Virus record (IMG/VR): IMGVR_UViG_3300037088_000882
Location: 1-64,000 of that record
Source of the DNA: a virus
Direction: 5' to 3' (one strand)
DNA length: 64,000 bases
Numbering within the stretch: position 1 is the first letter of the stretch; each line of letters opens with the position of its first letter. A program made the position numbers and the translations under genes. The notes under the pieces were generated by a model. The model did not search any database. It saw nothing but the letters and a program-made list of their open reading frames with translations, and was not told the DNA's origin. Below are positions 4,001-64,000 of this stretch, in pieces.

Positions 4001-4202
4001 TCCTAGTGCTGGTAATTCTAGAATGCGGACAACACCTCTTTTAAATGGAGGTGCTATGAATAGTGCTTTAGGCGGAGCTGTAGGTGGTGGAGGGAAAACC
4101 ATTAATATAAACGTTTCGGCTACAGAAAAAGATCTGGCCCAAAGAATAGCTAATGAAGTTAGAGGAGTACTATATAAAGAACAATTGACAGGAATGGCAT
4201 AA
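1005..4202 (+). CDS. Tail tape measure protein with lytic transglycosylase domain
   Basis: Long Ala/Lys/Gly-rich helical protein of 1065 residues, typical of tape measure proteins that set tail length and are ejected first. Residues 1-60 are predicted coiled coil, and about 185-220 is a Gly/Ala-rich hydrophobic stretch that could insert in membrane. A soluble lytic transglycosylase (SLT/goose-lysozyme-like) domain lies near the C-terminus: catalytic Glu814 in GHESGG, GPMQV at 836-840, and AAYFQGD at 913-919 in place of the usual AAYNAG. This would cut peptidoglycan during infection. The last 70 residues resemble the GESIFP...ININV tail common in tape measures. The start follows an AGGA site near 990. 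The enzyme call is strong; 'tape measure' rests on length, composition and gene order. Confidence 0.88.
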   Translation: MADPTPANMKAMEEALKKVQRQLENVEKATKKTTQNINKNFQNAAGGTEYFGKRLEYAEETIDDIAKNMKKIHLEKGLPVGKVIIVNKQMAVLQKRIEHIKNLKGPFNAASLDKQKKRIATITKEAVSLNKNVSGGVKVSTQRFADMAEGAGSFKDLFHSLKGSPKDMLKTAEGAGEVADKLKSMGGMAKGLGSALGGVSKIFGGPAGIAMAAGKALFDITVQADTFVKNANKGFASIRGPDIMTSDVEGQFKEFNDQIYNASANIRDGLNADAIRGFMEALSQSGYNITRLQGGLTTYRTAVDVAAKASKSLGVDIVQVGAYMGTLLNDFREDLAEVDKSFVQVAFDAKKSGMSTNNFWNTVQNATASLTLYGVKIDSAGKLLKTFSQNQIGGVKDAEAAAQDMLSVFKSTDRAQSALIMQMSKSGGFDLAGAFQKKAGEQGTKATKIKEEIKLVEAKPRTEENLSALDKLHTDLVNAEKDQANYTKATILAQKGDYVGLGTYFGDLANNVSDIVPALLKGMIPGLTNIGKIDEHNLAVLEKTSQLTGLSVPALRTIVKNAQFVNKELSDLSDYMGDFGGKLIDATDETKKGIGDAITEMDSGNEKGFEDLNNALLQAGMDPVQAKEMANLAKSNEVIRAILKKTLVQDKVVAKKELVNLQKTLKSDDVSNKAAFNSIDDQKASAAEMSKKSDDTFKKITSLTLSSQETMDIMGDEAKYRLYSTTLFKGMNKGIGFIAKFLTKAFGSKVKGVDEYISPEEEEKMQQDASDKITNEIKNVKPDDVTKAVDDLNKKFPKDAKLSPSLMQAIVGHESGGNAMAVPKDKTGNVLSTARGPMQVIKDTAQRVVKESGDVLGVKGGKSGTLPTYGSDYKMTAPGTVDLTDTKTGLAVGGRVLQKELTKYGGDPKKAIAAYFQGDTVVDNAIKADSKDWMSHLVNDKGENVSSQVAAYINDVNKRIMDSAIGSTPTATPTKATMGMPERVTSPGIVQLHSGESIFPSAGNSRMRTTPLLNGGAMNSALGGAVGGGGKTININVSATEKDLAQRIANEVRGVLYKEQLTGMA

Positions 4203-20113: not shown

Positions 20114-20836
20114 ATGTCTTTCGATTTAAATTTATCCACTGTATGCGACCATAGAATCGATAAAGAATCTGTGTCATTAGAATCTGACCAGAGGTCTATT
20201 CGATCCTTGCAACCTATTGCGTCATCTAATGTAGCTGTTTTTGCATCCAGTACCCAATTATCGAAGGGTCTTTATAGTTTAGTCTTTGATTCGACAGAAA
20301 ATATTCCAATAAACCAGACTCGAAAGGTTTATTTGGCCTATAAATGGAGATCACCTGAAGATTTTTTTCAATTAAGTTACAACACTCTTAGCAATTATTG
20401 CCCAAAATGTGTGGGATTAAATCAGGTAGATGACGTGAGTTATGATGCTAATGGCGATTTTTACACACTTAGGAATGAGCCATTATTGCTTCAAAATCTC
20501 GAAAAATTCACGGTCACGGAATTACAAAGCAATCCTTTTCAATTATTTGTAGGTACTAATCTGGTAAAATTACTTGGTCAAAGAATCTCAGATACAAGTT
20601 ATATGTCGACGAAAATAACTCAAGAAATAAATACGGCTTTGCAAGCCTTGAAAAGCTTACAGGATCAACAACGTTTTACGAAAAGGCCTGTTACAAGTGG
20701 AGAGCTTTTGGATAAAGTAGTCAGTATAAAAGTTAATTTCGATCAAGCTGATCCAAGTATTTTACGAGCTTTTGTTGTTGCTCAGGCTAAGTCAGGGAAA
20801 AGTGTGAATTTCACTCAATTTTTAAAGATTGCTTAA
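20114..20836 (+). CDS. Baseplate wedge protein, gp25-like position
   Basis: 240 residues. An N-terminal beta-rich part with one CPKC pair (about residues 98-101) leads into a region resembling gp25-type wedge subunits: SNPFQLFVGTNLVKLLGQRI, a helix, then RPVTSGELLDKVVSIKVNFD. The next gene encodes a baseplate J/gp6-like protein, the classical gp25-gp6 neighbour pair. In T4, gp25 joins the wedge to the sheath. The similarity is by pattern only. The CxxC suggests a possible metal or disulfide site with no partner pair visible. Confidence 0.6.
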   Translation: MSFDLNLSTVCDHRIDKESVSLESDQRSIRSLQPIASSNVAVFASSTQLSKGLYSLVFDSTENIPINQTRKVYLAYKWRSPEDFFQLSYNTLSNYCPKCVGLNQVDDVSYDANGDFYTLRNEPLLLQNLEKFTVTELQSNPFQLFVGTNLVKLLGQRISDTSYMSTKITQEINTALQALKSLQDQQRFTKRPVTSGELLDKVVSIKVNFDQADPSILRAFVVAQAKSGKSVNFTQFLKIA

Positions 20837-20852
20837 AAAGGATGAAGCTGTA

Positions 20853-23800
20853 ATGTCAATCATTGCTCCAATTATATTACTTCCTACTCCGAATAATTAT
20901 ACCACTGATATAAGCACTCAAACTTTATCTGGAACAACCGATCCTAATTCGGTTGGTATACAAGTAAATGGCTCGACTTTTGGAGTGTCATATACTCCTG
21001 GAGAGACCATATGGGCATGGGCTGGAACTTTATCTTTAGGTGTTAATGTCCTAAATATTGTTGCCATTGAAAAAACAACGAATAGTTTGAGCCCAGCAAC
21101 TACCATACAAATTACTCTAGTACAGAGTGGCTCGTTTGTAACAGTCTCCCCTCCTACTGGAATCCAGTTAAAACAATTTAAAAGCCAAATTCAAGTATTA
21201 AATGTTAAAAATCCCGAGGCCCAGACCCTGGGTTATAACTTTTATGTTAGCACACAAAGTGGTGGGATAAATAATACTTATGCAAAAATGAATTCAGTAC
21301 TTGTTACTGAATACTCTTTTTATGATGACCAAACTAAGTTATTGAGTAATGCTGTGGATACGGTTGGAAACATTAGAGTTACGACGACAACAGAAGAAGT
21401 CGATCGCATTTATTATTACTCTTACACATTTGATCAAACTACCTATATAAATTTGGTGAATGCTGGTTCGCTTCCTGCGGTAACCTTTTCACAAGATACC
21501 CCATTCTTCTTTGTGGTAACTGCAGTTATCTATGACCCAGTCCTGGGCCAGGTCTCGGAAAGTGCTTTTTCTGCAGAATTACAGGGATCTCCTATTACAA
21601 TTACCACAGGGCTTCAGGATCTGCCTGCTCGTACTCAGAATGATATAATCCTTACTTTTAGCCAAGAATTACTTACATCGAATGCAGGAATTGATACAAA
21701 GCCTGGTACGGTACTTCGGGATATGATGGATCCTATTTCGGAAGAAATGGCTCGAGTCTACGTAATCCAGGATTTCTTGTCTAACGCTTTAGGTGTGAGT
21801 ACCTTATTAGATTTTGATGATCCTAACCATACTGGATCCAGTGCTCCTGTTAGCTCTACCTTGAATAAACAGGCACTGAAAATGGCCTTGAATTTATCTA
21901 ATGATGGAGATGTCCAAAAGCTTATTGATAGTCAGTTCGATAAATTGGCTTCAAATGTTAATACAATTCGATTAGGTGCTACGCCTGCGGTCGGAACAGT
22001 AACCTTTTATCTACAAACAGCTCCTGTAAGAAATATGACCGTGAATCAGGGAGCTATTATTTCATCACTTGGTAATTTGGACCAGGGAATACCTTCTCAA
22101 AATTACACTGTTTTAGAGACTAAAACTTTAGATTACACGAATAAGGCTCAATTTTTTAATACCATAAGCAATCGTTATGAGTTGATTGTGAATGTTCAGG
22201 CTTCAACTCCTGGATCTGCCGGTAATACTGACTCTTATACGATTACTTCTATTTCATCTGGGGCTGATTCAGATTTCCAAGTAGAAAATCCGACTCCTAT
22301 AAGTTTTGGCCAGGATGTGGAAACCAATTACGAGCTTTCAACTCGAATCGAATTGGCTCTTTTTGCCGATACAGGTACAGCGGGCGGTTATGCAAAAACT
22401 GCTATCTCTGTTCCAAGTGTTCGTAATGTCCAGGTCATAGATGCTGGTGATCCCTTAATGATTCGAGATTATGATCCGATTAGGAATATCCATGTTGGTG
22501 GAAAAGTTGATCTCTATATCCAAGGGCGAGCGGTTAAGCAGGTATCCGATCAAATTGCTTTTTCTTTTGAAAGTGTAGGTGGACAAGGAACTCAGACGGG
22601 AGAATTATTTAATGTGGTAAATGCTCCTGCTTTTCAGTTCAAGTCTGAGAATCCCCGGGTCGGGCCTCATACCCCTATATTTGATGTTAGCAAAGTTCAT
22701 AATGCTACAAAAGGTAAAGATTACGATCTAACTAATTATCAGATCATAGATAACGGGGATACCATAGATCTTGATGAGACACTTGCAACGAACATTTCTA
22801 TTGGATTGGCATCTACTGATGTTGTTCGAGTTGACTATAAATTTAGAAGTTCAGATACTTTCATACTACAGCATCAGCCTGTACTCGGTATAAGTTCGGT
22901 TGTAGGGCAGATTTCAGGCCCTCTGACCTCGGATAACTGGGATTTGGTACAACTCCAGGACCCCTTAGATGAAGGTGGTTCTACAATAGCCCAGGACTCT
23001 ATTAGAATTAAATTTGCTAATAATCTCCCTCTGACACAGTTTCAGACAATTACGGATGAGTCTCATGTCCTGATCCTGGATCAGAATGAATCTTTGAATT
23101 TTATAGGGGCAGATCCGGAGTCCATTGTAATTAAGAACACGACTCGTACAATAACGTATGTCCAAAACACGGACTATAGGGTCATCCCAGGGACAGATAC
23201 TGTAGCCACGGCAGTTTTACTTATAGAGTCTGGTTCGATTCAAAATGGCCAGGAAGTTTTAATAAGCTATATCGCCATTGAAAATTTCATTATTACCTAC
23301 ACAACTAATAGCCTATTGGAAACCGTCCAGTTAAAAGTAAACACTATGAAGCATGCTTGTGCTGACGCCATTGTGAAACAGGATATCCAAAATGGTGTCG
23401 ACATGACCTTTACTGTGGTATCTAAAATATCAGCTACTGATGTTACAACAACTTCTCAGGTAATCAATCTTTTAGATTCTCAGATACGGACTGCTTTGAG
23501 TAATCTTGTTAACCAGCTTGGCGTGGGAGGTTCCCTAACTCAAAGTGCTGTTATTAAGGCTGTTCAGTCGATAAGTGATGTAAATTACATGATATTACCT
23601 ATGTCTCGTATGGTTAAGTCGGATAACTCCTTTATAGCTCGAGATCAGGTAGGTAAAACACAGTTTCAGATTTTTAATGAAGACGTAGTAAAATCTTATA
23701 TTACTGTGGTACCTGTGTTAACCTACAGCACAATTGCAGGCGGTGGTTCGGAAAACGCCTTTAGAGGGGTATTTGAGAACAGTTTACCTCTTGTCCTTCA

Positions 23801-24020
23801 GTCTGATCCTTTAGATGTCTCTGGAGGCTATGGCCGTGCTTATATTCAAGCCGATGGTAAGCTGGTCGTAAGTACCAAGGATGGTCAATTACCTGATACT
23901 AAGAATTATGAAGTTGCATATTTTGTGTTTGGTGAAAAGGGATCCAAAGATATTAATGCAGAATCAATTGAGAGTTTAATATTAGGGAATGTGGATATCC
24001 ATATTGTTACCCCTAGTTAA
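20853..24020 (+). CDS. Baseplate wedge protein, baseplate J / gp6-like
   Basis: About 1055 residues. The core (about residues 260-560) matches the baseplate J/gp47 family: GTVLRDMMDPISEEMARVY, then VGTVTFYLQTAP, a STPGSAGNT turn, and the ELSTRIELALFADTGTAGGY helix with VRNVQVIDAGDP. This fold forms the iris/dimer of the inner baseplate. N-terminal beta domains (~1-230) and C-terminal modules with the 'NTDYRV...GQEVLISY' hairpin are additions. I chose ATG 20853, because AAAGGA lies about 10 nt upstream. A TTG at 20829 would also be in frame but lacks a good site. Confidence 0.85.
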   Translation: MSIIAPIILLPTPNNYTTDISTQTLSGTTDPNSVGIQVNGSTFGVSYTPGETIWAWAGTLSLGVNVLNIVAIEKTTNSLSPATTIQITLVQSGSFVTVSPPTGIQLKQFKSQIQVLNVKNPEAQTLGYNFYVSTQSGGINNTYAKMNSVLVTEYSFYDDQTKLLSNAVDTVGNIRVTTTTEEVDRIYYYSYTFDQTTYINLVNAGSLPAVTFSQDTPFFFVVTAVIYDPVLGQVSESAFSAELQGSPITITTGLQDLPARTQNDIILTFSQELLTSNAGIDTKPGTVLRDMMDPISEEMARVYVIQDFLSNALGVSTLLDFDDPNHTGSSAPVSSTLNKQALKMALNLSNDGDVQKLIDSQFDKLASNVNTIRLGATPAVGTVTFYLQTAPVRNMTVNQGAIISSLGNLDQGIPSQNYTVLETKTLDYTNKAQFFNTISNRYELIVNVQASTPGSAGNTDSYTITSISSGADSDFQVENPTPISFGQDVETNYELSTRIELALFADTGTAGGYAKTAISVPSVRNVQVIDAGDPLMIRDYDPIRNIHVGGKVDLYIQGRAVKQVSDQIAFSFESVGGQGTQTGELFNVVNAPAFQFKSENPRVGPHTPIFDVSKVHNATKGKDYDLTNYQIIDNGDTIDLDETLATNISIGLASTDVVRVDYKFRSSDTFILQHQPVLGISSVVGQISGPLTSDNWDLVQLQDPLDEGGSTIAQDSIRIKFANNLPLTQFQTITDESHVLILDQNESLNFIGADPESIVIKNTTRTITYVQNTDYRVIPGTDTVATAVLLIESGSIQNGQEVLISYIAIENFIITYTTNSLLETVQLKVNTMKHACADAIVKQDIQNGVDMTFTVVSKISATDVTTTSQVINLLDSQIRTALSNLVNQLGVGGSLTQSAVIKAVQSISDVNYMILPMSRMVKSDNSFIARDQVGKTQFQIFNEDVVKSYITVVPVLTYSTIAGGGSENAFRGVFENSLPLVLQSDPLDVSGGYGRAYIQADGKLVVSTKDGQLPDTKNYEVAYFVFGEKGSKDINAESIESLILGNVDIHIVTPS

Positions 24021-24034
24021 GAAAGAGATATAAA

Positions 24035-27000
24035 ATGGCTGACAATTACGGAACAGGCGTTTCTTTTGTAGATCAAGTAACAGGGTATAATTATGATACG
24101 GTAGTTTTCCAAAAAGGAAAACCTCCGCTTGATACTGAATTAAATGCCGTCCAGCAGATTCGAAATCTTCTGGACCAGCGGGAGCATTCTACATTGCCTT
24201 CAGGATGGCTTACCCTAAAGCCTTTTTATACTAGTTCCTTATTATCAAATAGCTTTTACACGCAAGATCCTTCGGCGCCTACTCCTGAATATGCCTTGGT
24301 AAATGGTGACGTTCTACATATCACAAATACTGCAACAACAATTTCGAATACCAATTTAGTCGAACTTGGAGCACCTCCTCCAACAGGGAATCAGGTAAAT
24401 GGCATTTTCTTGGAAGTGTGGAGGGCATTATTATCTCCTGTAACAAGTACGAATCGTCCTGTACCTGAGACTATTATAAGTGCCTTAAAAGATATCAGTG
24501 TTATAGATAAGAATACGGCTTGGGCGGTTGGAGAAAATGGCCTTATATTAGCCACTCCTGATGCGGGCCAGACTTGGGCAATTCAGTTAATTGATTCAAA
24601 GAATACTTTAAATGGAGTTTTCTTTGTAACATCGACAATTGGATGGCTTGTAGGAACCAATGGTTGTATAGCTCGAACAACTTCGGGCGGGCAACGCTGG
24701 AATGTTTTAGCCACGGGATTTAATCAAGATCTTAATAGTATCTACGCCGCTTCTCAGCTGAATGCCTGGGCGGTTGGTAATTCAGGAGTGATTCTGAATA
24801 CTTCTAATGCAGTAACCTGGCTGGCTCAGACAAGTGGTGTGAGTGTTGATTTGAACTCAGTTTATTTTTCGACTTTAAATCCTCTTATTGGTTGGGTAGT
24901 TGGAAAAAATGGAACCATTTTAAGAACAACTGATGGTGGAGCAAACTGGATTAAAGTGGCCAGTGGTACTACAATTGATTTGAATTCAGTTTTTTTCTAT
25001 AATTTGAATGAAGGGTTTGCTGTAGGAAATGCTGGTACGATACTTAAGTCTACTGATGGTGGACGAACTTGGATCGGATTATCCTCTGGAGTTACGGTAG
25101 ATTTAACCGATGTGGCCATGACCCCGAGTCTTGATCAACAAGTTGTTGGTGAAGAAGTAACTTCTCAATTTACTGGGTCTAATAAAAATTTCGTTACGAT
25201 GAATGCCCCTATTACAGTGGGTGACGGTAAAGGGACAATAACAAATGTTCCTGCTGATGTTATAGTTACTGTCAATGGTGTTCAGGTTGGTGTTGATGTA
25301 GTTGTTGGAGCTACAGGCCAAATTGTTTTGGCCTTGCCTCCTCGAGCTTGTGATACGGTAAAAGTGACTTATTATTATAGAATCACCAATAATGTTTTTC
25401 GTGGGAACGCTTACGTGTCGGGAAAAACTGGAACTGTTTTATACTCAGGAGATGTTGGAGCTACTTGGGTTCCTCAATCTTCGGGAGTGTTTTATGATTT
25501 AAATGCTGTTGCTTTTGCTGATTTAAAAGATGGGTGGCTTGTAGGTCTTTCATCTATAATACGTCATACCATGGACTCGGGAACGACTTGGTTACCTCAA
25601 TCAAGTAATATTCCGTACCGACAAATACAGAGAGTGTTTCTTGAAGGTAATATTCTGGTTGGGGGTGGGTCAGGTTATCTTCCTGATGATTCTATACATC
25701 CTGATGTGAATATAGAAACTACTGAGCGTGTTCAAATTCAATATGCTATTCGTACTGTGAATAACGTAGATCCACTTAATTTCCCTGATTCAGGGCTTGG
25801 ATCTCAAGTAGTCTTATCTATTGGGCCAAACGCATCAGGAACGTTTGCTTATGAGAATATGGGCTCTATTAATGGGGATTATGGCCTATGGAGAGCCAAG
25901 TGTGCAAACACTGTTGATGGGTACTGTTATGCTATTCCAATGTTTTTCGTAAATAGACGTAATGCTTCTGATTATAATCCTTCAAGTAATTCAAATGGCA
26001 CGACAAATTATACCACTGATGCAATACGACTAGATCTTCTTAGTGCTAGTAATGTTGTTGATTCGGATATTTTAGATGTTAGAAGAATGATCCAGGTTCC
26101 TGCTGTTGCAGAATTGTTGGATGCATCCTTTGAGCAGCTTATGGACGGTCGATTAAAAACAAGGATGGCTCTTGATACGGTTGGTGGAGATAAATTCGGA
26201 ACTGAGATTTTTCAACTGGATAGAGTAGGACCTGGAAGTTTTGGGTCTTTAATTCCTAATGCCTTATTTAAGGATGCCGTGGATGGAAATATCTCTTCTC
26301 AAGTATCCCTGAGCCCTGTGACTTACCCTATTTTAGTTCCTGCTTCAAGACCTGTTCCTCCTACTCAGACTTTTACAGATAGTAGTGGTGTGTTCCATCC
26401 TAATTCCATGTATTATTCAGCAGTCTATCAAGATACTACTCGACCTATTCCAGGATTTTTTGAAGGGTTTGGCACTAAGCAGTTAACGTTTACCTTTGAT
26501 AGCTCTGCCAATACTCAGGCCGAGGATCCGGGCTTATCTGGTCTAAATTACTTTATCAATACCACTCAGGTGAATGTAAGTTCTCTTGCTTTAACTCATG
26601 TTCCAAGTAAACCTGGTCTAGTGAAAAACACTCGTACAGGAAGTATTGATTTTTATTATCAAGGAGTCTTTGATTCTGAGACTTCTGGTCGAGTTATTGA
26701 ACAGTGGCCTTCGGATGCTGGTGCAGGATATATTAATTATGCTGTTGTTTATCCAGGTAGTGACGTGGCTACGCCTGAGACCAAGACCATGGCCTCTACT
26801 GTTGAGTTACATTATTTTATAAAGACTGATAGCAGTAATGTGCTCGGTACAGATACATTAGTTTTATCTTCTATTCTTGCTCCTCCCGATGCATCAACAG
26901 CATATAATATTTTATCTGTTTCTAAGTTAAATAACGTGACTGCAGGATACTCTTATAAGATTAAGGATATTGTTTTTCCTACGATTACAACAATTAATTT

Positions 27001-28075
27001 GCAGACTGCTCCAGGATTCCCTTTTATAACGGGAACAGTTTTTGAAGTGGTTGGTCAATGTCTTTCTTCAGTCATAAATGGCTATAAAAATAGGAATGGA
27101 GCTTCAGTTAATTTCACTCAGAGTGAGAAAAAAATTGGAACTTTCTGTTCTTCCGTGCTTCTTACTGATACTAATAGGGATATACATAATACGATCACCC
27201 TTACTCTACCAAACAATGATACAATTATAGGGGTTTCTTCAACTGATTCGACTGGGGCTGTAGGTTCGATTTTACCCTTTTGTTGGGCTGCGCCTGTTGC
27301 AGGTAGTTCTTATGGGAGTATTCACCCAATTAAAATCTTAAGTGATTTTACAAATAATTCTATTGTTTTTAATATAATAGATAATGCTTCAATAACGACC
27401 TCTCCTACTTCTGTTACTGTACAGGTTTTGACAAGACAGAATAATTTGCCCTATAGTGTGGAAAATTCTACTGATAGTTTGCAAATTGGCTATAGTTATA
27501 TACCATATCAGTCTATTTCGGAATTACCTACGACCTTGACTGCTCAGATTGCTCTTAAGCCTACAGTGGTTAACGTTTCCACTTTAGGTACTGGAGGAAG
27601 CGTTTTTACACGGGAACCTTATCAACAACCTTTAATTAATATTCCTGTGAATGATCCTTTGATTCCAGATGATAATAGTTTTTATAACATTGAGCCGTTA
27701 CGTTTTGCTAACTTTTCGATTGATGGGGGATTTGCTCAGTTACCTGCATATGTTCCAGGTAATCTAAATGGATCTTTAGTTTTATCTGAGCCTACAAAGG
27801 ATAATCAATCACGGTATTATTATGGAATAAGTTCAAGAGAGTTTAATTTCCGAACTGAGGGTTTACTGACTCCTGCGGCACGTAAGGTTTTTGCAGGACT
27901 TCTTGGTCGAGTTCTTACTTCTTCCGATAATAAGTTACTTCGAGGAGAGTATGTTTTGATAATAGTGTCGAAGAATGAATCTTTGAGTTTAGAAAATTCG
28001 GCAGGTTTCACGGCCAATGCTAATAGTGTAATAGCAATTTACAGATTACCTAATCGACCAATTGTAAGGATTTAA
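24035..28075 (+). CDS. Baseplate/fibre protein with inserted Ycf48/BNR-like beta-propeller
   Basis: 1346 residues. The N-terminal FLEVWR (125-130) and the ETTERVQIQY block (from 561) are adjacent in its paralogue at 61772, but here they are separated by ~430 residues. The insert holds seven repeats of the type GW-x-VG-x-x-G-x-I-x-x-T-x-D-G-G-x-x-W (first near 161, last near 499), i.e. a seven-bladed Ycf48/BNR-like propeller. Between blades 5 and 6 is a further ~90-residue beta module (about 365-455). After the insert the protein realigns with its paralogue (YAIPMFFVNRRN, LRRM-like segments). Probably a surface-exposed baseplate or fibre component; sugar binding by the propeller is inference. 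Confidence 0.8.
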   Translation: MADNYGTGVSFVDQVTGYNYDTVVFQKGKPPLDTELNAVQQIRNLLDQREHSTLPSGWLTLKPFYTSSLLSNSFYTQDPSAPTPEYALVNGDVLHITNTATTISNTNLVELGAPPPTGNQVNGIFLEVWRALLSPVTSTNRPVPETIISALKDISVIDKNTAWAVGENGLILATPDAGQTWAIQLIDSKNTLNGVFFVTSTIGWLVGTNGCIARTTSGGQRWNVLATGFNQDLNSIYAASQLNAWAVGNSGVILNTSNAVTWLAQTSGVSVDLNSVYFSTLNPLIGWVVGKNGTILRTTDGGANWIKVASGTTIDLNSVFFYNLNEGFAVGNAGTILKSTDGGRTWIGLSSGVTVDLTDVAMTPSLDQQVVGEEVTSQFTGSNKNFVTMNAPITVGDGKGTITNVPADVIVTVNGVQVGVDVVVGATGQIVLALPPRACDTVKVTYYYRITNNVFRGNAYVSGKTGTVLYSGDVGATWVPQSSGVFYDLNAVAFADLKDGWLVGLSSIIRHTMDSGTTWLPQSSNIPYRQIQRVFLEGNILVGGGSGYLPDDSIHPDVNIETTERVQIQYAIRTVNNVDPLNFPDSGLGSQVVLSIGPNASGTFAYENMGSINGDYGLWRAKCANTVDGYCYAIPMFFVNRRNASDYNPSSNSNGTTNYTTDAIRLDLLSASNVVDSDILDVRRMIQVPAVAELLDASFEQLMDGRLKTRMALDTVGGDKFGTEIFQLDRVGPGSFGSLIPNALFKDAVDGNISSQVSLSPVTYPILVPASRPVPPTQTFTDSSGVFHPNSMYYSAVYQDTTRPIPGFFEGFGTKQLTFTFDSSANTQAEDPGLSGLNYFINTTQVNVSSLALTHVPSKPGLVKNTRTGSIDFYYQGVFDSETSGRVIEQWPSDAGAGYINYAVVYPGSDVATPETKTMASTVELHYFIKTDSSNVLGTDTLVLSSILAPPDASTAYNILSVSKLNNVTAGYSYKIKDIVFPTITTINLQTAPGFPFITGTVFEVVGQCLSSVINGYKNRNGASVNFTQSEKKIGTFCSSVLLTDTNRDIHNTITLTLPNNDTIIGVSSTDSTGAVGSILPFCWAAPVAGSSYGSIHPIKILSDFTNNSIVFNIIDNASITTSPTSVTVQVLTRQNNLPYSVENSTDSLQIGYSYIPYQSISELPTTLTAQIALKPTVVNVSTLGTGGSVFTREPYQQPLINIPVNDPLIPDDNSFYNIEPLRFANFSIDGGFAQLPAYVPGNLNGSLVLSEPTKDNQSRYYYGISSREFNFRTEGLLTPAARKVFAGLLGRVLTSSDNKLLRGEYVLIIVSKNESLSLENSAGFTANANSVIAIYRLPNRPIVRI

Positions 28076-28076
28076 T

Positions 28077-28439
28077 ATGCTGACTACAACAAAATCGACG
28101 AATTTCGGTATAGAAATTCAGGATTCAACGGTTTCCATTCTTCCAGGGACCGCGAGGATTGGAAATAGACTCTACCCTTTTACTGGGACTCGAACGACCT
28201 ACACTCAAATGTTGAGTTTTGGTCCTACAGATGTAAATAAATACCAGAATATTCTTCTTTATTTAAACGATCCAACTGGAGTGCCTAATTTAGCCAGTGC
28301 CGTATCGTTGCCTGTATCAAGTCCTACTGATTTGAATATTCCTGAAATGCCTGATTCATCTGGATTTCCTATAAGTTTATTCACTCTTTTATCTCCAGAT
28401 GGAACAAATGCGACACTCGTCTCATATACGGCTATTTAA
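28077..28439 (+). CDS. Small protein ending the first structural block
   Basis: 120 residues, 1 nt after the propeller protein. It begins with TTKSTNFGIEIQDSTVSILPG, a short beta-rich pattern like the tip or foldon-adjacent parts of fibre proteins. It has no cysteine, export signal or enzyme motif. The stop codon abuts the stop of the convergent small zinc-ribbon gene. Probably a fibre-associated or baseplate accessory protein; family unknown. Confidence 0.6.
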   Translation: MLTTTKSTNFGIEIQDSTVSILPGTARIGNRLYPFTGTRTTYTQMLSFGPTDVNKYQNILLYLNDPTGVPNLASAVSLPVSSPTDLNIPEMPDSSGFPISLFTLLSPDGTNATLVSYTAI

Positions 28440-31964: not shown

Positions 31965-32051
31965 TGGTACCGGAAGAGTGACTTGAACACTCACGGGATT
32001 GCTCCCAATAGATCTTGAATCTATCGCGTCTCCCAATTTCGCCATTCCGGC
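31965..32051 (-). tRNA. tRNA-Leu (CAA)
   Basis: Full class II cloverleaf: acceptor GCCGGAA/TTCCGGT, anticodon loop TTCAAGA (anticodon CAA, reads UUG), long variable arm, T-loop TTCAAGT, A73 and encoded CCA (31965-31967). Confidence 0.93.
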
Positions 32052-32084
32052 TTAAGTGGTCAGGACAGGTTTACGCCCTACGAT

Positions 32085-32162
32085 TTATGCCACACGCTTT
32101 TTCATTTTACTGTACAGTGTGGATCTATTAATATGAAGCATTTCAGCGATTTTTAAAGTGGG
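32085..32162 (-). pseudogene. Remnant of a helix-turn-helix protein C-terminus
   Basis: In frame from the 3' edge of the next tRNA to TAA 32085, the sequence reads TLKIAEMLHINRSTLYSKMK and then KRVA. This is a clear Fis/homing-endonuclease-type helix-turn-helix (IAEML-x-INRSTLY). No start or N-terminal domain remains: the frame enters the tRNA body. Probably the tail of a decayed homing endonuclease or regulator that once sat among the tRNAs. Confidence 0.5.
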
Positions 32163-32232
32163 ATTGGAGGAATTCGAATCCTCATTGTGTTGATTTTAAG
32201 TCAACTGCCTCTACCAGTTGGGCTACAATCCC
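32159..32232 (-). tRNA. Class I tRNA with UAA anticodon (Leu codon UUA)
   Basis: 74-nt cloverleaf with acceptor GGGATTG/CAATCCC, D-arm GCCC...GGC, anticodon arm GTTGA-CTTAAAA-TCAAC, 5-nt variable loop and T-arm GAGGA-TTCGAAT-TCCTC, A73, no encoded CCA. The anticodon TAA reads UUA, but leucine tRNAs normally have a long variable arm, and all four canonical Leu tRNAs in this cluster do. The anticodon arm resembles bacterial tRNA-Lys except for the anticodon, so its amino acid identity is uncertain. Confidence 0.85.
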
Positions 32233-32244
32233 TCAATATAAATC

Positions 32245-32270
32245 ACATGTCTACCAATTTCAACACCTGA
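32245..32270 (-). pseudogene. Fragment resembling a tRNA-Leu 5' half
   Basis: GTGTTGAAATTGGTAGACATG on the minus strand resembles the acceptor-D-arm junction and D-arm of the Leu tRNAs in this cluster (TGAAATTGGTAGAC), but no anticodon arm follows. It sits just upstream of the UAA tRNA and may be a relic of a replaced tRNA-Leu. Confidence 0.35.
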
Positions 32271-32280
32271 ATAGTAAAAA

Positions 32281-32363
32281 TGGAAGGGGCAAGATTTGAA
32301 CTTGCGAACTCCGAAGAGACGGGATTTACAGTCCCGGGCCTTTAACCACTCGACCACCCTTCC
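32281..32363 (-). tRNA. tRNA-Tyr (GTA)
   Basis: Class II cloverleaf: acceptor GGAAGGG/CCCTTCC, anticodon loop CTGTAAA, variable arm CTCTTCGGAG, T-loop TTCAAAT, A73. CCA is not encoded, so it needs the CCA-adding enzyme at 37351. Confidence 0.93.
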
Positions 32364-32370
32364 GTAAATT

Positions 32371-32456
32371 TGCGGATAAGAAGATTTGAACTTCTAAAAG
32401 GATTACTCCTCGCTGGTCTCTGAAACCAGTGTGTTTACCAATTCCACCATATCCGC
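32371..32456 (-). tRNA. tRNA-Leu (CAG)
   Basis: Class II cloverleaf: acceptor GCGGATA/TATCCGC, anticodon stem CTGGT/ACCAG with loop TTCAGAG, long variable arm, T-loop TTCAAAT, A73. Reads CUG. Confidence 0.92.
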
Positions 32457-32465
32457 GTAATATAT

Positions 32466-32620
32466 AGATTGCGTTCAAGTTACTAAAGCATTTACCCCTT
32501 TCGGGATACTTGTCGATTCTCAAGATCGATGCCTTACCAATTTGGCTATATTTCCATTCGGAAACACTCGGAGTCGAACCGAGATTAGTAATGTAGGCTT
32601 TAATTGTAAAAACGCAATCT
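32466..32620 (-). tRNA. Circularly permuted tRNA element A (UGA anticodon, Ser-like)
   Basis: In transcript order: 5' terminal strand AGATTGCGTT (32611-32620), TTTACA, helix strand ATTAAAGC, 13-nt joint with TACATTA, T-arm CTCGG-TTCGACT-CCGAG (32567-32583), acceptor 3' strand TGTTTCC, G73, a 3-nt loop AAT, acceptor 5' strand GGAAATA, D-arm GCC...GGC, anticodon arm TCGAT-CTTGAGA-ATCGA (32513-32529), CAAG, a GAAA-capped hairpin, helix strand GCTTTAGT, AACTTG, and terminal strand AACGCAATCT (32466-32475). All seven acceptor pairs form (one G-U). Anticodon TGA with G73 fits serine, whose synthetase reads the variable arm. The break lies in the variable region. Confidence 0.82.
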
Positions 32621-32627
32621 AATCTGG

Positions 32628-32711
32628 TGCGGTCGGTCTGATTTGAACAGGCATAGGATTGCTCCCACATGCACCTCAAGCATGCGTGGCTACCAATTAC
32701 ACCACGACCGC
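32628..32711 (-). tRNA. tRNA-Leu (GAG)
   Basis: Class II cloverleaf: acceptor GCGGTCG/CGACCGC, anticodon stem CATGC/GCATG with loop TTGAGGT, long variable arm, T-loop TTCAAAT, A73 and encoded CCA (32625-32627). Lies between the two permuted elements. Confidence 0.92.
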
Positions 32712-32720
32712 ATAATTTAT

Positions 32721-32863
32721 AAAGCCATATCCGAGTTATCAATGCTATCTTGATAGATTCTATTCTATTGCCTTTACCATTTGGCTATTCCCCCATAATT
32801 GGGGGAACGTGGAATCGAACCACGAATTTTTAATGTAAGCATCAACGGTAAAGATATGGCTTT
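32721..32863 (-). tRNA. Circularly permuted tRNA element B (6-nt anticodon loop)
   Basis: Same order as element A: terminal strand AAAGCCATATC (32853-32863), TTTACC, GTTGATGCT, joint TACATTAAAAATT, T-arm CGTGG-TTCGATT-CCACG (32808-32824), acceptor 3' TTCCCCC, A73, loop ATTAT, acceptor 5' GGGGGAA, D-arm GCC...GGC, anticodon arm ATAGA-ATAGAA-TCTAT (32753-32768), CAAGAT, AGCATTGAT, AACTCG and terminal strand GATATGGCTTT (32721-32731). The terminal 11 bp and acceptor 7 bp are perfect. The anticodon loop has six nucleotides, so the anticodon is ambiguous (AGA if T is position 33, TAG if A is). Confidence 0.78.
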
Positions 32864-32880
32864 AATTTCAAAGAACTTGG

Positions 32881-32966
32881 TGCGAATGTAGAGATTCGAA
32901 CTCTAAAGAGCTGTTAAGCTTCCAGATTCTAAGTCTGGCCCCTGCTACCAATTCGGGTACATTCGC
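32881..32966 (-). tRNA. tRNA-Leu (TAG)
   Basis: Class II cloverleaf: acceptor GCGAATG/CATTCGC, anticodon arm CCAGA-CTTAGAA-TCTGG, long variable arm, T-loop TTCGAAT, A73 and encoded CCA (32878-32880). Reads CUA and neighbours. Confidence 0.93.
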
Positions 32967-56630: not shown

Positions 56631-59600
56631 ATGGCTATCTATACACCAAATCCTGAACAACTCGGCCGACGTCGTTTCCCGGATAATAAAGCCTTTAGAA
56701 AGCAACTTTCTAACCTGGCTGACAATGTCCTGGGGCAAATGCAAGGCCTTCTTGCCAGTAATTACCCCAGTGATCCTAATACTAACCTGGCTGTGTTTTA
56801 TAAAGTTCTTTCTCGAGAAGCTGCCCGACTCCAGCTCGGGATAAATGCTATAAATGACGATAAACAGTACACACTGACCCGCCCTCAATTCTTGCAACAG
56901 GTCTTAGGGGAACGTCTTGGCCTGGGGTCTCGGATAGCTCCAACGAATTATGATGACCAATCTTATAGAAATTATCTTCTCTCAATTAAGAATGCCTACT
57001 TGGTAGGCAGCTTAAAAGATAATATCGAGGCCCTGGCCTCGGAATTTACAGGTCAAACTGTTAATATTCGGGAACTTTACCTTGAAGCTCGAGATCCTCA
57101 TTCTTCTTTGGATGTTGCTACTTCAGCTAATATGATGGTGGTCAATGTTTTAATTGATACCCTAAGGGCTGGAACTGATTTAGCTACTTTATCACAAGAT
57201 TTAAACTTTTTTGTTGGTTTAGTTCGTCCTGCTCACGTTTTATACGATACGAGATTCATATGGACTGAACAAATCGATGTGAATAAGGTTCACGATATAC
57301 TATTTGGAGATACTGGCGGTGGCTGTGTTCCTATTTATAATTATGATTATTTTACTGAACCCACTATTAAAGCTCTATTGGTATTCGAACTTCCTGGTCC
57401 TGTAGGGGCTTTAGGTTCAATTGAAGCTATCCATCATGATGATTATGTGTTCTATCTCAATAATTCAACAAGAGTTATATACGAACCAGGATATTCCAGG
57501 GCATTTGATGAAACGGGCCACGAAATCCCTTTTAACGACCTGGAGATCGGTAAATATGTCCGAATTACTTATCAAGAGATTCCTGGAAGCTTTAATTTCT
57601 GGTATCCTCCTACAGGTTTAATAACAACTTGGGCTTCTCAGTTTTATAAGAGTGTTTTTCAACGCCCTTTATTTCAAGAAACTGTGAAGAAGGTAATGGA
57701 CCGCAATGGACGCTTCCCTCTTCAAATAAAAACAACACCCACTACTGTATGCGATCGGTGGGTTCAGGATGCCTTACAGCCTTATTATGAAGATTTAAGA
57801 GGGAATTGTAACGTTGGTCGAGTTCAGCCTGCCTTTAATAAATTTATCTTACAAGCTCGAATGGGTTTTCCGAGATTAGATTGGCCTTATGATTCAAGTA
57901 CTGTTCATGATAAAGCCCTGTTAGGTAATGATTATATCTCTTTTATGCAGTACAGCCCTCTAACGGATGGATCCAGTCATGCTGCGGGTATAAATGACGT
58001 TTCAGTCAAATTTGATGGTACTTCTTTAAATAATGCTGTTACTTTAGTAGATGCTAGTACTGGCCGTGTAGAGCTTAATCAGACCCTGGCTTTCTGGGAT
58101 GGTACTTTTAGTCGATACCCGATGCCTGGGGATGTCTTTGATTTTAATTATCATTATTTAAGTGATAGTACGAATTTTGATGCCTCAACTTCCAAGGTTT
58201 ATGGAATAACTTACTGGCAACTCCCCTATGCTCCTCTTATTAAAGATTCTAGTGGGACCCTTGCTGATACAAGTAGTGTTGATTTATACGTTGATGGAAC
58301 TCATATTCCTGGGGCCCTTATATCTCTTGACCCGCTTCTTGGTCATGCAATTATTCAGTCGACACCAAGTTTTTGGAATTCTACATTAGGAAGAATTCCA
58401 GTTATAGGCGATACTTTTGAATTTGATTCCACATGGGGAGATCGATTTCAATACCCGGCCTTGTTTGATGATCTTGCAAGGCCAATGGATTATTGGATAG
58501 GGAATCCTTATGTAATAGTTTTAGATGGTACAGGTACGGGGAATATTGTTGATTCGAGTAGTGCTGCCACACATCCAGATCCTGTTCTGATTGGTTATCG
58601 ATTTAGAACTGATTTACTGCATCATGCTTCGGTTCTTAATTCGCCTGACACACTATTGCTTAATCAGTATCAAAAGCCAGCAACTCGTGCTTCCATAGTG
58701 AATCAGGAAGCGGTACTGAATCATTCCAATTATTTCTTCAGTCCTGAGTTCTTATACGATCAAAATCCTGTTACGAAGCCTTTAGGGGATGATTATCTCG
58801 ATAATGGTTTGGATCCTGTTTTAAAACTTAGGGAAGGTACTCCGACTTTTCAGCAGACCTTTTCTTATCAGCCTGGTCTTATTTATCAGAAGAAGTTGCA
58901 GGACATAAGGAAAAATCATCGTTTATTGATGTATGCTGATTTATTGCAGAAAGAATTTAGAGATGATGGTGAGAGCTTACCTCTAAGCAGTATTTGTGAA
59001 GATATTCTTACTTTTAAGACTCGTTTAGGTGAGGATGATTATAACGGTCCTTACGAATGTCAGCCATGGATTCTTTTTGACACTGTAGATGTTTCAACTC
59101 AGCCTGTTCAGATACCAGGTGATTATAAGGGAGTTCCTAATTTAAGAGTTGCTGATAAGCTTTTACGCCAAAATTTTATCCTTCGAGAAGTTGAACCTTC
59201 TGGGACGGCCACAGTATCTTATGAAGTAACTAATTCAGATGAGGTGGATCCTCCTACATCTTTTACTTTACCTTCGACTCTTGAAATTTTTTATAATGAT
59301 GATTACATCGATTTTCCATCCTTACCTGTTGTAGATCTCGATGATAATCTGGCAGGTATTGATGATATAACTTGTGTGGCTTATTTAGAAGATAATCCTA
59401 GTGTTGCAGTGCCTGTAACTATAACGTCAATAAATCCGACGGCTGGGATTGTTACAGTTGAATATCCAACAGCTACTACATACAGCGAGATTCATACGGT
59501 TACTGCAGAAGAATCTGCCGCAAATCAAATAAGGCTTTCAGGGTTTATTTATTCTGATGCTATTGCTGTGAGTATTGTACGTGGTGTATCTCAATATTTG

Positions 59601-60191
59601 GATGATGATTTTAGAATATCTGGACGCAGGTTATTTTGGTATTTTGGAAATCTTCAGAATCGAGTTCTTCCTGGGGATGAATTAAGGATATCTTATACCT
59701 ATAACCCCTTTGCAGGGGCAAAACTTGTTTTCACATACCATATCCAAAATGATGTTTCTGTTCCAGTAATAATTCGAGATTGGTCTCGAATTATGGATGA
59801 TAAATATGTTTTTGCTGGATTATGCCATGATGTCGAGGCAGTTAAAATAGGCCTGAATATGACCGAGTACTTGCCAGGTCTTGATGATGATAGCGACAGT
59901 ATAACAATACCATTTTTCAATACAAATACTCTTGAAATTGAAAAGCACGAATTTACGGGCCCTGTTTTCGAGACCTATGAGGCCATTGAGGATGAAATTG
60001 GAGCACCAGGTAATTTTTACAACTCACTTGTTCGGATCAAGAGATTTAGTGGAGATACTCCATTAAACTACTCTTCAACGTACAGTTTTATTAATGATAA
60101 ATTAGTTCGTTTCAGGAAAAAAACTTTTAGGGAACTAATGCCAGATCGAACATTTAAAACTACGAAAATTGTTGAAATGCTTCCAGTTTAG
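56631..60191 (+). CDS. Large baseplate/fibre structural protein
   Basis: 1186 residues. The N-terminal ~200 residues are helical (KQLSNLADNVLGQMQGLL, YRNYLLSIKNAYLVGSLK, then IEALASEFTGQ), like the attachment domain of tail-associated wedge proteins. A central part has at least two copies of a module ending in FW-[DN]-[GS]-T-x-[SG]-R-x-P-x-x-GD-x-F-x-F. Towards the C-terminus are beta hairpins of the same VNG/DY type as in the other structural genes. Opens the second (+) block. No enzyme domain visible. Confidence 0.72.
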   Translation: MAIYTPNPEQLGRRRFPDNKAFRKQLSNLADNVLGQMQGLLASNYPSDPNTNLAVFYKVLSREAARLQLGINAINDDKQYTLTRPQFLQQVLGERLGLGSRIAPTNYDDQSYRNYLLSIKNAYLVGSLKDNIEALASEFTGQTVNIRELYLEARDPHSSLDVATSANMMVVNVLIDTLRAGTDLATLSQDLNFFVGLVRPAHVLYDTRFIWTEQIDVNKVHDILFGDTGGGCVPIYNYDYFTEPTIKALLVFELPGPVGALGSIEAIHHDDYVFYLNNSTRVIYEPGYSRAFDETGHEIPFNDLEIGKYVRITYQEIPGSFNFWYPPTGLITTWASQFYKSVFQRPLFQETVKKVMDRNGRFPLQIKTTPTTVCDRWVQDALQPYYEDLRGNCNVGRVQPAFNKFILQARMGFPRLDWPYDSSTVHDKALLGNDYISFMQYSPLTDGSSHAAGINDVSVKFDGTSLNNAVTLVDASTGRVELNQTLAFWDGTFSRYPMPGDVFDFNYHYLSDSTNFDASTSKVYGITYWQLPYAPLIKDSSGTLADTSSVDLYVDGTHIPGALISLDPLLGHAIIQSTPSFWNSTLGRIPVIGDTFEFDSTWGDRFQYPALFDDLARPMDYWIGNPYVIVLDGTGTGNIVDSSSAATHPDPVLIGYRFRTDLLHHASVLNSPDTLLLNQYQKPATRASIVNQEAVLNHSNYFFSPEFLYDQNPVTKPLGDDYLDNGLDPVLKLREGTPTFQQTFSYQPGLIYQKKLQDIRKNHRLLMYADLLQKEFRDDGESLPLSSICEDILTFKTRLGEDDYNGPYECQPWILFDTVDVSTQPVQIPGDYKGVPNLRVADKLLRQNFILREVEPSGTATVSYEVTNSDEVDPPTSFTLPSTLEIFYNDDYIDFPSLPVVDLDDNLAGIDDITCVAYLEDNPSVAVPVTITSINPTAGIVTVEYPTATTYSEIHTVTAEESAANQIRLSGFIYSDAIAVSIVRGVSQYLDDDFRISGRRLFWYFGNLQNRVLPGDELRISYTYNPFAGAKLVFTYHIQNDVSVPVIIRDWSRIMDDKYVFAGLCHDVEAVKIGLNMTEYLPGLDDDSDSITIPFFNTNTLEIEKHEFTGPVFETYEAIEDEIGAPGNFYNSLVRIKRFSGDTPLNYSSTYSFINDKLVRFRKKTFRELMPDRTFKTTKIVEMLPV

Positions 60192-60254
60192 TAGGTGATA
60201 ATCTTTTAATACGTCGTGCCTTTTACTGAATGTACCCCTAAAGGAGATTTTAAA

Positions 60255-60842
60255 ATGATTTTTTTAGAGAAGTTGCATAAGGCATTTGAGCACACCTTTG
60301 GTGGATTTCTTCTAAGACAGGAAGAAAACACCAGAACCCTTCGTGGGGAATATCGCATAATATTAAGAGATGCCTCAACTGGTAAGATTCTTGAAGAGAG
60401 ACGAAACCACAATCTTATCGTTAATTCAGCTTCGATATTAATCGCTCGTCTTTTAAAAGACAGTAGTGAACCTTTAGGTGGAATAACTTATTTAGCAGTA
60501 GGCACAGGAGCTTCTGGATGGAATTTACAGAATCCTCCTCAACCTGTCCCTACCCAGACGCAGCTCTTTAACGAGATAGCACGTAAAGCTTTTACGACAC
60601 AGGATGTGACCTTTATTGACCCTACAACAGGTGACCCTACTGTGATTCCTACGAACGTTGTAGATTATACATGTACGTTTGCAGAAACGGAAGCTGTGGG
60701 GCCTATTGTAGAAATGGGAATGTTCGGTGGAGACGCTACAGATCTCGCTGATAGCGGGTCCATGGTCAATGACCGGAATTTTCCTGTCATTAATAAAACC
60801 AATTCAATGACGCTCACAATAATATTCAGGATTACAGCCTAA
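60255..60842 (+). CDS. Tail fibre-associated protein
   Basis: 195 residues from ATG 60255, whose AAAGGAG is 8 nt upstream; an upstream ATG at 60216 lacks one. Contains a pattern common in phage tail genes: NHNLIVNSASILIARLLKD, LAVGTGASGW, then TQLFNEIARKAF and VEMGMFGG. The exact role is unknown; a fibre or baseplate decoration protein is likely. Overlaps the next gene by 1 nt (TAATG). Confidence 0.68.
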   Translation: MIFLEKLHKAFEHTFGGFLLRQEENTRTLRGEYRIILRDASTGKILEERRNHNLIVNSASILIARLLKDSSEPLGGITYLAVGTGASGWNLQNPPQPVPTQTQLFNEIARKAFTTQDVTFIDPTTGDPTVIPTNVVDYTCTFAETEAVGPIVEMGMFGGDATDLADSGSMVNDRNFPVINKTNSMTLTIIFRITA

Positions 60843-61771: not shown

Positions 61772-64000
61772 ATGTCTGATTATTTAGGCCTGAACCAAAC
61801 CAGAGTATTAGATTCATCCAATCGTAGTTTTGAAGCAGTTGTTTATCAGAGGAAAAAACCGCCTCTATCCTGTGAAGTTAATTTCATGGGAAATCTCGAA
61901 TCTGCTCATCTGCGGGATGTTGCTGAATTGGTGGGCCCAAGTGGTTGGGTCTCGGTTGGAAATATTAAAGACAATGTCTCAGAGATCTCTGCTCGTTGTG
62001 GTGATGTTATAACTTCTCCTACTTACGGTGCTAATACTTTTAAACTCATGGCTACAGATAAAGGCCTCGTAACAGGGGAATTGGTTGCCTGGGTTAATGG
62101 AATGAAAGTTGTTGTTCAGGGTACAAATTCCCCTGACGAAAATAACGTAATCACATTACCTGCTCCTCCTTCTTTAAGTAATCGAGTTGATTTTGTGTTT
62201 CTGGAAGTATGGAGAAAATTGGTAACTCCTTCTGATGTTATTTATACCCATGGTAATGTCCTTTACGGTAGTGCAAACTATTTGAATGATCTTATTGATC
62301 CTGCTGCAAGTGTCGAAACAACTTTAAGAATTCAAGTTCAATATAGAATCAGAGTAGCTTCGGTAGATATCGATTCTTATCCTGAAGGCTTTGATCCTAA
62401 TCAAGTGTATGCTCAAGGTCCTCTGGCAAATCCTTTGACTTGTACAGGTGCTGCTTTTGTTCAGATGCCAGATGATCCAGGATTATGGAGAGCAGGACTT
62501 GGGGATTCAGCTGCACAACAAAGTTTGCAAACAGTTGATGGGTATACTTATGGTATTCCAATGTTTGCTATTTGCCGTAGGAATACTAGTCAGTTTAATC
62601 CTAATACACATACAAATGGTGCTGGATATGATCTGACTCATTATTTGAATGGCTGGACTTCCGATCGTCCCGATAATCTTTTCAGTGACTGGGTAGTTAC
62701 TGATGATATCATGGATATGAGACATACGATTAAAGCTGATAATTTAAGAGATAAATGTAATGAAGCTTTTCAAAAACTGATCAGTGGCAAACTCCGTGGA
62801 AAGATGCAAAAAAACACTTTAGGGGAAGATCGTTTTGAAAATGTTGCAGTGCAAATTGATGGCATAAGTTCAGCTGATCCTGGATGGTTTAATCGTATTA
62901 CGGTAGGAGATGGCATTCGAAGAACATTTTCAAATGCTGCTCTTACTCAAGAGCATGCTCTTATAGAAGTTCCTGCCTCAGGAACTTGGAATTCTTTAAG
63001 TACTATAGGTCTTGCAGCTGTATTTAATTACCCTATTGGAACTACTATTTATAATGTGGCTTCTGTATGGGCCCAGGTAGATCCTGTAACTCTCATACCT
63101 CTTACTTTAGGGGTTGATTATAATGTTACCTATAACGGATCAACGGCTGTAATCGATTTTAATCTTGGAAGTTCCTTTATTTTTGGTACCTCTTATACGC
63201 TCACAGTGGATTATACTATTCAATATCCTGCTGTGACCAATATAAGCGGTTATCCAAAAGATAGTGGTTTATATTACTTGCCTTATAAGTTTCTCGAATC
63301 TCGTATGGGAAGTGATTCTACCGTTGCTTTCCCGTTATCTGTAGGTTCAAGTGTAAATCTCCATGGTATATCTCCTGTGATTTCTTCTGATGGGACTTTT
63401 TCCAGTTCTGTTTTTAATAAAGGGGCTAATTCAACAGAGCCTTACGATTTTGGCATTCAAATGACGTATAGTTTATTAGGAAGTCCTTCAAATACTATCG
63501 TTATTCCTCGCAATATATGGGGTTATGAGATCTTAGGTGTTGTAAGTATCTACATTCCTAGTACACTTTCTTATCGACCTATTGTTACGGTAGCCAGAAA
63601 TGCTACTTCTTACAATATTGTTTATAGCGGTACGGTAGCTACAAGTAATCAAACAATTCAATTAGTCCTATATGTAGGTGCTTCGAATTTAAATCCAAGT
63701 GTCCCAAGTAAGTTTTTTCAGACAAATAAACAAGGTAAAGCAATAGTTGATACATTCCAGATGAAGGAATTAGTTCCAACTCAGGCAGCTACTGGACAAA
63801 CGACCTTTTATGTGGATGCTCATACCAGTGTTATTCAGGGTATTGCAAGCATAAGGAATCAGAGTGGGTATGGTATTGCTTATATTGACGGTACGATGAC
63901 AACAACCCTTACTAATAACGCCTTTTTACCTACAGATAATACATGTTCGAGAGCCACTATAACTTTTTCAGTTCCTCCTCCTAACGGATCTCTTATTGAG
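61772..64000 (+). CDS. Baseplate/fibre protein, propeller-less paralogue (3' end outside window)
   Basis: At least 743 residues, open to the window end. It aligns with the protein at 24035-28075 over the N-terminal half: FLEVWR (143-148) and ETTLRIQVQY (from 182) correspond to FLEVWR and ETTERVQIQY there, but only 33 residues separate them here, against 430 in the paralogue. The later IPMFAICRRNTSQFNPN and DDIMDMRHTI segments also match. C-terminal hairpin modules continue to the window edge. Probably a surface protein of the baseplate or fibre. Confidence 0.8.
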   Translation, partial: MSDYLGLNQTRVLDSSNRSFEAVVYQRKKPPLSCEVNFMGNLESAHLRDVAELVGPSGWVSVGNIKDNVSEISARCGDVITSPTYGANTFKLMATDKGLVTGELVAWVNGMKVVVQGTNSPDENNVITLPAPPSLSNRVDFVFLEVWRKLVTPSDVIYTHGNVLYGSANYLNDLIDPAASVETTLRIQVQYRIRVASVDIDSYPEGFDPNQVYAQGPLANPLTCTGAAFVQMPDDPGLWRAGLGDSAAQQSLQTVDGYTYGIPMFAICRRNTSQFNPNTHTNGAGYDLTHYLNGWTSDRPDNLFSDWVVTDDIMDMRHTIKADNLRDKCNEAFQKLISGKLRGKMQKNTLGEDRFENVAVQIDGISSADPGWFNRITVGDGIRRTFSNAALTQEHALIEVPASGTWNSLSTIGLAAVFNYPIGTTIYNVASVWAQVDPVTLIPLTLGVDYNVTYNGSTAVIDFNLGSSFIFGTSYTLTVDYTIQYPAVTNISGYPKDSGLYYLPYKFLESRMGSDSTVAFPLSVGSSVNLHGISPVISSDGTFSSSVFNKGANSTEPYDFGIQMTYSLLGSPSNTIVIPRNIWGYEILGVVSIYIPSTLSYRPIVTVARNATSYNIVYSGTVATSNQTIQLVLYVGASNLNPSVPSKFFQTNKQGKAIVDTFQMKELVPTQAATGQTTFYVDAHTSVIQGIASIRNQSGYGIAYIDGTMTTTLTNNAFLPTDNTCSRATITFSVPPPNGSLIE

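What the first reader, a model, noticed from the sequence alone, without database searches (positions are those of the whole stretch)
24035..28075. Beta-propeller inserted in a structural protein, with a second insertion inside it
Compared with the paralogue at 61772, FLEVWR and ETTxRxQxQY are 430 residues apart instead of 33. The extra ~400 residues hold seven Ycf48/BNR-like blades, and between blades 5 and 6 sits another ~90-residue beta module. It is a clear case of nested domain insertion between paralogues in one genome and may alter receptor binding.
Basis: seen in the sequence. Interest (0 to 1): 0.66.

Follow-up and report, generated by a model that had tools for sequence, protein, structure and literature searches.

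The report
Propeller nested in phage baseplate protein
A tail-tip protein of a large phage carries a seven-bladed propeller domain spliced into its middle, and one blade of that propeller carries a further small domain of a kind otherwise found in the tail sheath of related phages; about 26 related phages share the layout, some with a different domain in the same place, so it is a fixed part of their tails whose target is still unknown.

Summary
The gene at 24035-28075 (1346 aa) is a paralogue of the 1043-aa protein starting at 61772. The gap FLEVWR to ETTxRxQxQY is 430 versus 33 residues. The extra ~400 residues form a seven-bladed Ycf48-type propeller (Pfam PSII_BNR 1.8e-26; AF2 pLDDT mostly >90; best PDB matches Ycf48). 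One correction: the ~90-residue module lies inside blade 6, between strands A and B, not between blades 5 and 6. Some 26 other distinct phage sequences share the design. On a scaffold-only tree all carriers form one clade (100/100); their propeller-less paralogues form a second clade (with one short contig of unknown status). More distant relatives lack the propeller, so one gain is simplest; loss by the shorter paralogue is disfavoured. New here: the blade-6 site holds one of two unrelated modules, by lineage. Type A (the window's) is homologous to modules in the tail sheath of related carriers and of propeller-less phages; type B was found nowhere else in the records searched. The gene sits among baseplate wedge genes. 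A peripheral baseplate role (host-surface docking or wedge bracing) is the best reading. Receptor binding is unproven, and the propeller is not hypervariable.

The parts
24035..28075 (+). Propeller-bearing structural protein, 1346 aa, next to a Baseplate_J gene
   Evidence: ORF; homologues
24035..24436 (+). Scaffold N-terminal part (residues 1-134), shared with the paralogue; FLEVWR at 24407-24424
   Evidence: BLASTP 4e-11
24440..25633 (+). Inserted segment, residues about 136-533 (~398 aa)
   Evidence: absent from the paralogue and from propeller-less homologues
24485..25099 (+). Propeller blades 1-5 (residues 151-355)
   Evidence: blade HMM, AF2 strands, PSII_BNR
25103..25126 (+). Blade 6, strand A (residues 357-364)
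   Evidence: AF2 model
25130..25402 (+). Nested type A beta module (residues about 366-456) in the A-B loop of blade 6
   Evidence: AF2; HMM matches to tail sheath modules of relatives
25403..25492 (+). Blade 6, strands B-D (residues 457-486)
25499..25615 (+). Blade 7 (residues 489-527)
25634..26254 (+). Scaffold continuation (residues 534-740) shared with the paralogue; ETTERVQIQY starts at 25715
   Evidence: BLASTP 8e-30; A1
26255..28072 (+). C-terminal part (residues 741-1346), the least conserved part
   Evidence: 37% mean pairwise identity among type A carriers
61772..64000 (+). Propeller-less paralogue (continues to about 64903 in the record; 1043 aa)
20829..24020 (+). Baseplate J-like wedge protein (BW2 / T4 gp6 type) just upstream
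   Evidence: Pfam 4.9e-17, PHROG 5e-22
28077..28439 (+). Small 120-aa protein; homologues follow the propeller gene in the type A carriers checked
56631..60191 (+). 1186-aa baseplate protein, candidate BW3 (P2 gpI / T4 gp7 position)
   Evidence: weak PHROG match 0.005; gene order
60216..60842 (+). Candidate BW3TFN (wedge 3 - tail fibre network connector), 208 aa, upstream of the propeller-less paralogue
   Evidence: Pfam BW3TFN 1.2e-7, above cut-off

Best explanation
The protein belongs to a family of probable baseplate / tail-fibre-network proteins of large contractile phages. In one lineage the gene was duplicated, and the copy placed between the wedge genes gained a seven-bladed Ycf48-type propeller in a loop of its conserved scaffold. 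The A-B loop of blade 6 then became the site of a further beta module: type A, of the kind found in the tail sheath of related phages, in the window's lineage, and an unrelated type B in the sister lineage. In the virion the scaffold fixes the protein at the baseplate periphery and the propeller is held out as a rigid hub. By propeller topology (entry and exit on the D-A loop side, module in an A-B loop) the module should project from the face opposite the tether. The hub most likely serves contact with the host surface (weak glycan or envelope docking), possibly together with bracing of neighbouring wedges. SHOWN by sequence or prediction: architecture, insertion site, the two module types, homology of type A to sheath modules; a single gain is the most parsimonious history. 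INFERRED: baseplate location (gene order only), face geometry (topology, not coordinates), direction of the module's move (breadth of occurrence), and the docking function.
For: Paralogy and insert size. Seven blades in the window and in nearly all carriers; one marginal 19-residue hit among 65 propeller-less homologues. Ycf48-like by Pfam, NCBIfam, PDB sequence and Foldseek. Carriers one clade at 100/100 on trees that leave the insert out, and their paralogues in a second clade at 100/97. Of 23 carrier records searched, 18 hold two family members, one long and one short; 5 show only the long one. In the propeller-less relatives L055/L059 the J and candidate BW3 genes are adjacent and the copy found lies downstream of the 208-aa gene's homologue. 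The 208-aa neighbour matches BW3TFN, proteins that connect receptor-binding proteins to the baseplate (PMC10811340). Type A module in sheath proteins of carriers and of LR745208, Tunturi_5 (annotated tail sheath) and G026, and in a ~450-500-aa protein. Type B found only inside propellers. Precedents for phage baseplate propellers: phi11 RBP, phiKZ gp131C (PMC4901313).
Against: No direct evidence of virion location or ligand. The propeller is conserved nearly like the scaffold and was not seen lost, which fits a structural part as well as an adhesin. Window ORF 10612-16512 has tail-fibre PHROG matches, so host binding may be done elsewhere. The model's pTM is only 0.54, so domain-to-domain geometry is unreliable.
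Confidence: 0.5

Rival explanations
1. The propeller is a purely structural bracket: it braces neighbouring baseplate wedges or fibre bases and never touches the host; the nested module adds a protein-protein contact like the sheath's extra domains.
For: Conservation close to that of the scaffold and no loss seen in the carrier clade; the same type of module sits in sheath proteins, where extra domains have been proposed to stabilise neighbouring subunits (PMC9230969); gene lies between wedge genes.
Against: Several phage propeller matches are annotated as tail fibre or baseplate proteins and baseplate propellers of phi11 and phiKZ have been proposed to bind receptors (PMC4901313); the module's identity differs between lineages, which fits an exposed site better than a fixed interface.
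Confidence: 0.35
2. The propeller is an enzyme (glycosidase or depolymerase) that clears surface polysaccharide.
For: GH74 xyloglucanases are among the Foldseek matches; NCBIfam F510_1955 glycosylhydrolase match below cut-off.
Against: GH74 matches have low TM-scores (about 0.25) compared with Ycf48 (0.71-0.74 on the target); the glycosylhydrolase match is far below its cut-off (37.6 against 175 bits). Catalytic residues were not examined.
Confidence: 0.07
3. The propeller is ancestral and the shorter paralogue lost it.
For: Only that the long copies are one clade and the short copies another, so the root matters.
Against: All more distant family members checked lack the propeller; on the midpoint-rooted trees gain needs one event and loss at least two.
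Confidence: 0.03
4. Artefact: a chimeric assembly, or an in-frame self-splicing element.
For: None found.
Against: Same layout in 26 other distinct sequences, most from different samples; one open frame; predicted to fold as a propeller with module. Splicing-element motifs were not searched for.
Confidence: 0.01

Closest known systems
Ycf48 / HCF136 (PSII_BNR, PF14870)
   Same: Seven-bladed propeller with the same blade signature; best PDB matches by sequence (5ojp, 1.8e-14) and by fold (5ojr, 2xbg; TM 0.71-0.74 on the target)
   Different: Here an inserted domain of a phage structural protein, with a module inside blade 6; 91.8 bits against an NCBIfam Ycf48 cut-off of 326; no link to photosystem II seen
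phiKZ gp131C and phi11 Gp45 propellers
   Same: Beta-propellers of phage baseplate proteins; gp131C has seven blades and lies at the baseplate periphery (PMC4901313)
   Different: gp131C is a C-terminal domain; the phi11 propeller has five blades; no nested module is mentioned in the passages read; no phiKZ match in tblastn at 1e-5
Cyanophage gp7 (S-CAM9, S-SSM7 'baseplate wedge initiator')
   Same: A Ycf48-like stretch in a baseplate protein
   Different: No match of our scaffold profile to S-CAM9 gp7; in S-CAM9 the stretch is near the C-terminus of a 3884-aa protein and gives no PSII_BNR match in Pfam at 0.01
Extra Ig-like domains of phage tail sheath proteins
   Same: Type A module is homologous to sheath-resident modules of these phages; added beta domains in sheaths are known (PMC9230969)
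   Different: Here placed inside a propeller blade of a baseplate-region protein; an Ig-like fold of the module itself was not tested

Membership tests
Ycf48 / HCF136 | Seven-bladed propeller with PSII_BNR repeats | tested here: met
Ycf48 / HCF136 | Reaches the curated Ycf48 equivalog score | tested here: not met
   91.8 bits against 326; so a Ycf48-like fold, not a Ycf48 protein
Ycf48 / HCF136 | Photosystem II assembly function | not testable with these tools
   phage structural context makes it unlikely
Phage receptor-binding propeller | Propeller domain in a virion protein at the baseplate periphery | tested here: inconclusive
   propeller shown by prediction; location only from gene order
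Phage receptor-binding propeller | Binds a host-surface ligand | not testable with these tools
   no assay
Baseplate wedge / tail-fibre network protein | Gene in the wedge cluster (BW2-BW3-BW3TFN) | tested here: met
   Baseplate_J upstream; candidate BW3 and BW3TFN downstream, in the window beyond a 28-kb block
Baseplate wedge / tail-fibre network protein | Sequence match of the scaffold to a known wedge family | tested here: not met
   no Pfam, NCBIfam or PDB match of the scaffold; only an unnamed PHROG for the paralogue
Tail sheath module | Significant match of the nested module to modules in sheath proteins | tested here: met
   HMM E 3e-57 in G001's sheath and matches in the other records
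DUF2460 | Module reaches the Pfam family | tested here: inconclusive
   6 of 12 members match, best E 0.00095; the window's own copy does not match at E 1

The most novel reading that the evidence does not exclude
The A-B loop of blade 6 is a standing docking site for interchangeable virion modules: phages move domains between sheath and baseplate-region proteins and present different ones on one conserved propeller, so surface properties change without altering the wedge core.
Probability: 0.25. Interest if true: 0.6.

Novelty: new variant of a known kind. Interest (0 to 1): 0.42.

Why it matters
It gives a directional case of two-level domain insertion in a phage structural protein, with the empty counterpart kept in most of the same genomes. 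It also shows one beta module shared by tail sheath and baseplate-region proteins of related phages, and two unrelated modules at one loop in sister lineages. That makes the question of what added domains on phage tails do testable by comparing the lineages. Ycf48-type propellers, and propellers in phage tail proteins, are already known.

Tried and rejected
Loss by the short paralogue: disfavoured by parsimony. Homology between type A and type B modules: not detected (hhalign probability 0.8%); their folds were not compared. Recent copying of the module from sheath to propeller within single genomes: not supported, copies group by host protein rather than by genome, though the module tree is short and poorly resolved. 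Hypervariable-adhesin test: the propeller is not hypervariable. Face-by-face loop conservation gave no clear signal. Scaffold against PDB, Pfam and NCBIfam: no match. Homology of the C-terminal thirds of the two paralogues: weak only. Literature on this exact arrangement: none seen in seven searches, of which only short lists and passages were read.

Full report
OBSERVATION. The ORF at 24035-28075 encodes 1346 aa and that at 61772 encodes 1043 aa, running past the window end. The window is part of a 92,412-base virus record. The two proteins align over 1-135 and 534-739 of the long one (E 4e-11 and 8e-30) with no significant match in between.

FOLD. Pfam PSII_BNR matches at 1.8e-26 and Ycf48 chains are the best PDB sequence matches. 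An AlphaFold2 model of residues 1-756, from an alignment of 28 family members, has pLDDT mostly above 90 in the propeller but pTM 0.54, so domain placement is not reliable. Foldseek's best PDB matches are Ycf48 structures (TM 0.71-0.74 on the target) and a designed seven-blade protein, nvWrap-T, reaches 0.85. A blade HMM finds seven blades. The extra module (about 366-456) separates strand A from strand B of blade 6, so it is inside a blade, not between blades 5 and 6.

RELATIVES. A first scan found one close relative, with the same propeller and module (46% identity) and with both paralogues. A scan with a six-sequence scaffold alignment gave 79 viral and 15 genome-collection loci. L021-L052 carry blades; the gaps that could be measured there are 433-535 residues. 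Among 65 propeller-less family sequences checked, one gave a marginal 19-residue blade hit (E 0.0077) and the rest none. LR745208 (485 kb) and Tunturi_5 (308 kb) lack the propeller.

HISTORY. On an IQ-TREE of scaffold columns only, 27 carrier rows (the window's included) form one clade at 100/100 among 48 propeller-less rows. In a second tree, thinned of 16 rows and with paralogues taken from carrier records added, 14 such paralogues plus one MAG contig (L105, 8.9 kb, propeller status of its virus unknown) form a clade at 100/97. In 18 of 23 carrier records two family members were found, one long and one short; 5 records showed only the long one, and since records may be fragments this is not evidence of absence. 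In L055 and L059 the J-like and candidate BW3 genes are adjacent and the family member lies after the homologue of the 208-aa gene; in carriers the propeller gene lies directly after J. Both trees are rooted at the midpoint only. The simplest reading is duplication, then one gain of the propeller.

MODULES. At the blade-6 site the window's clade has a type A module (about 90 aa; two tandem copies in L028) and the other carriers a type B module (about 125-150 aa). The type A carriers form a supported clade; the grouping of all type B carriers is not well supported. Profiles of A and B do not align. A type B protein was also modelled, with the module at the same place in the blade order (Foldseek). 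Type A is homologous to modules in tail sheath proteins (Tunturi_5's is annotated tail sheath; G001's has a Phage_sheath_1C match below the cut-off) and in a ~450-500-aa protein, in carriers of both types and in propeller-less phages. The window's own record gave no module outside the propeller, but it is partial and its sheath gene was not identified. Type B was found only in the propellers. Module copies group mainly by host protein, with weak support on 88 columns. The sheath being the older home is inferred from its wider occurrence.

SETTING. Upstream is a Baseplate_J protein (BW2 type); the 1186-aa protein has a weak baseplate match; the 208-aa protein matches BW3TFN. In the Milano paper BW3TFN proteins are described as connecting receptor-binding proteins to the baseplate, and BW2/BW3 globular domains as linking wedges and attaching receptor-binding proteins (PMC10811340). 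The scaffold itself matches no named family.

FUNCTION. Mean pairwise identity in type A carriers: scaffold 56-58%, propeller 51%, module 48%, C-terminal part 37%, upstream J 59%; in type B: scaffold 62-63%, propeller 49%, module 48%, C-terminal part 47%, J 49%. So the propeller is moderately conserved, not hypervariable. phi11 and phiKZ propellers are precedents for baseplate propellers; for phiKZ receptor binding was speculated but not confirmed (PMC4901313). I hold host-surface docking and wedge bracing as close rivals, 0.5 to 0.35.

LIMITS. All carriers found are metagenomic; there are no virion data; coordinates of the models could not be inspected, so the face argument rests on propeller topology from general knowledge.

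Noticed in passing
window 28440-56630: A ~28-kb stretch of mostly minus-strand genes with 12 tRNAs separates two tail genes (120-aa and 1186-aa) whose homologues are adjacent in the relative G001; apart from the flanking 1186-aa gene, one ORF of the stretch had a BLASTP match in G001, weak (26%).
   Followed up: partly
window 31965-32966: Five Leu tRNAs with anticodons caa, taa, cag, gag and tag lie in one array.
   Followed up: no
L020:462-3290 (-) and L020:3859-5280 (-): Relative G001's tail sheath protein holds three type A modules and a nearby 474-aa protein one.
   Followed up: yes
L028:4078-6645: Tandem duplication of the type A module inside blade 6.
   Followed up: partly
L006:9346-12678: Next to the propeller-less homologue, Tunturi_5 has a gene annotated 'regulator of chromosome condensation', the name of another propeller family.
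   Followed up: no
L100, L105: Contigs binned as KSB1 bacterium and Altiarchaeales archaeon carry this family with the same gene order as the phages; probably phage contigs in MAG bins.
   Followed up: no
window 1005-4202: 1065-aa protein with a transglycosylase SLT domain.
   Followed up: no
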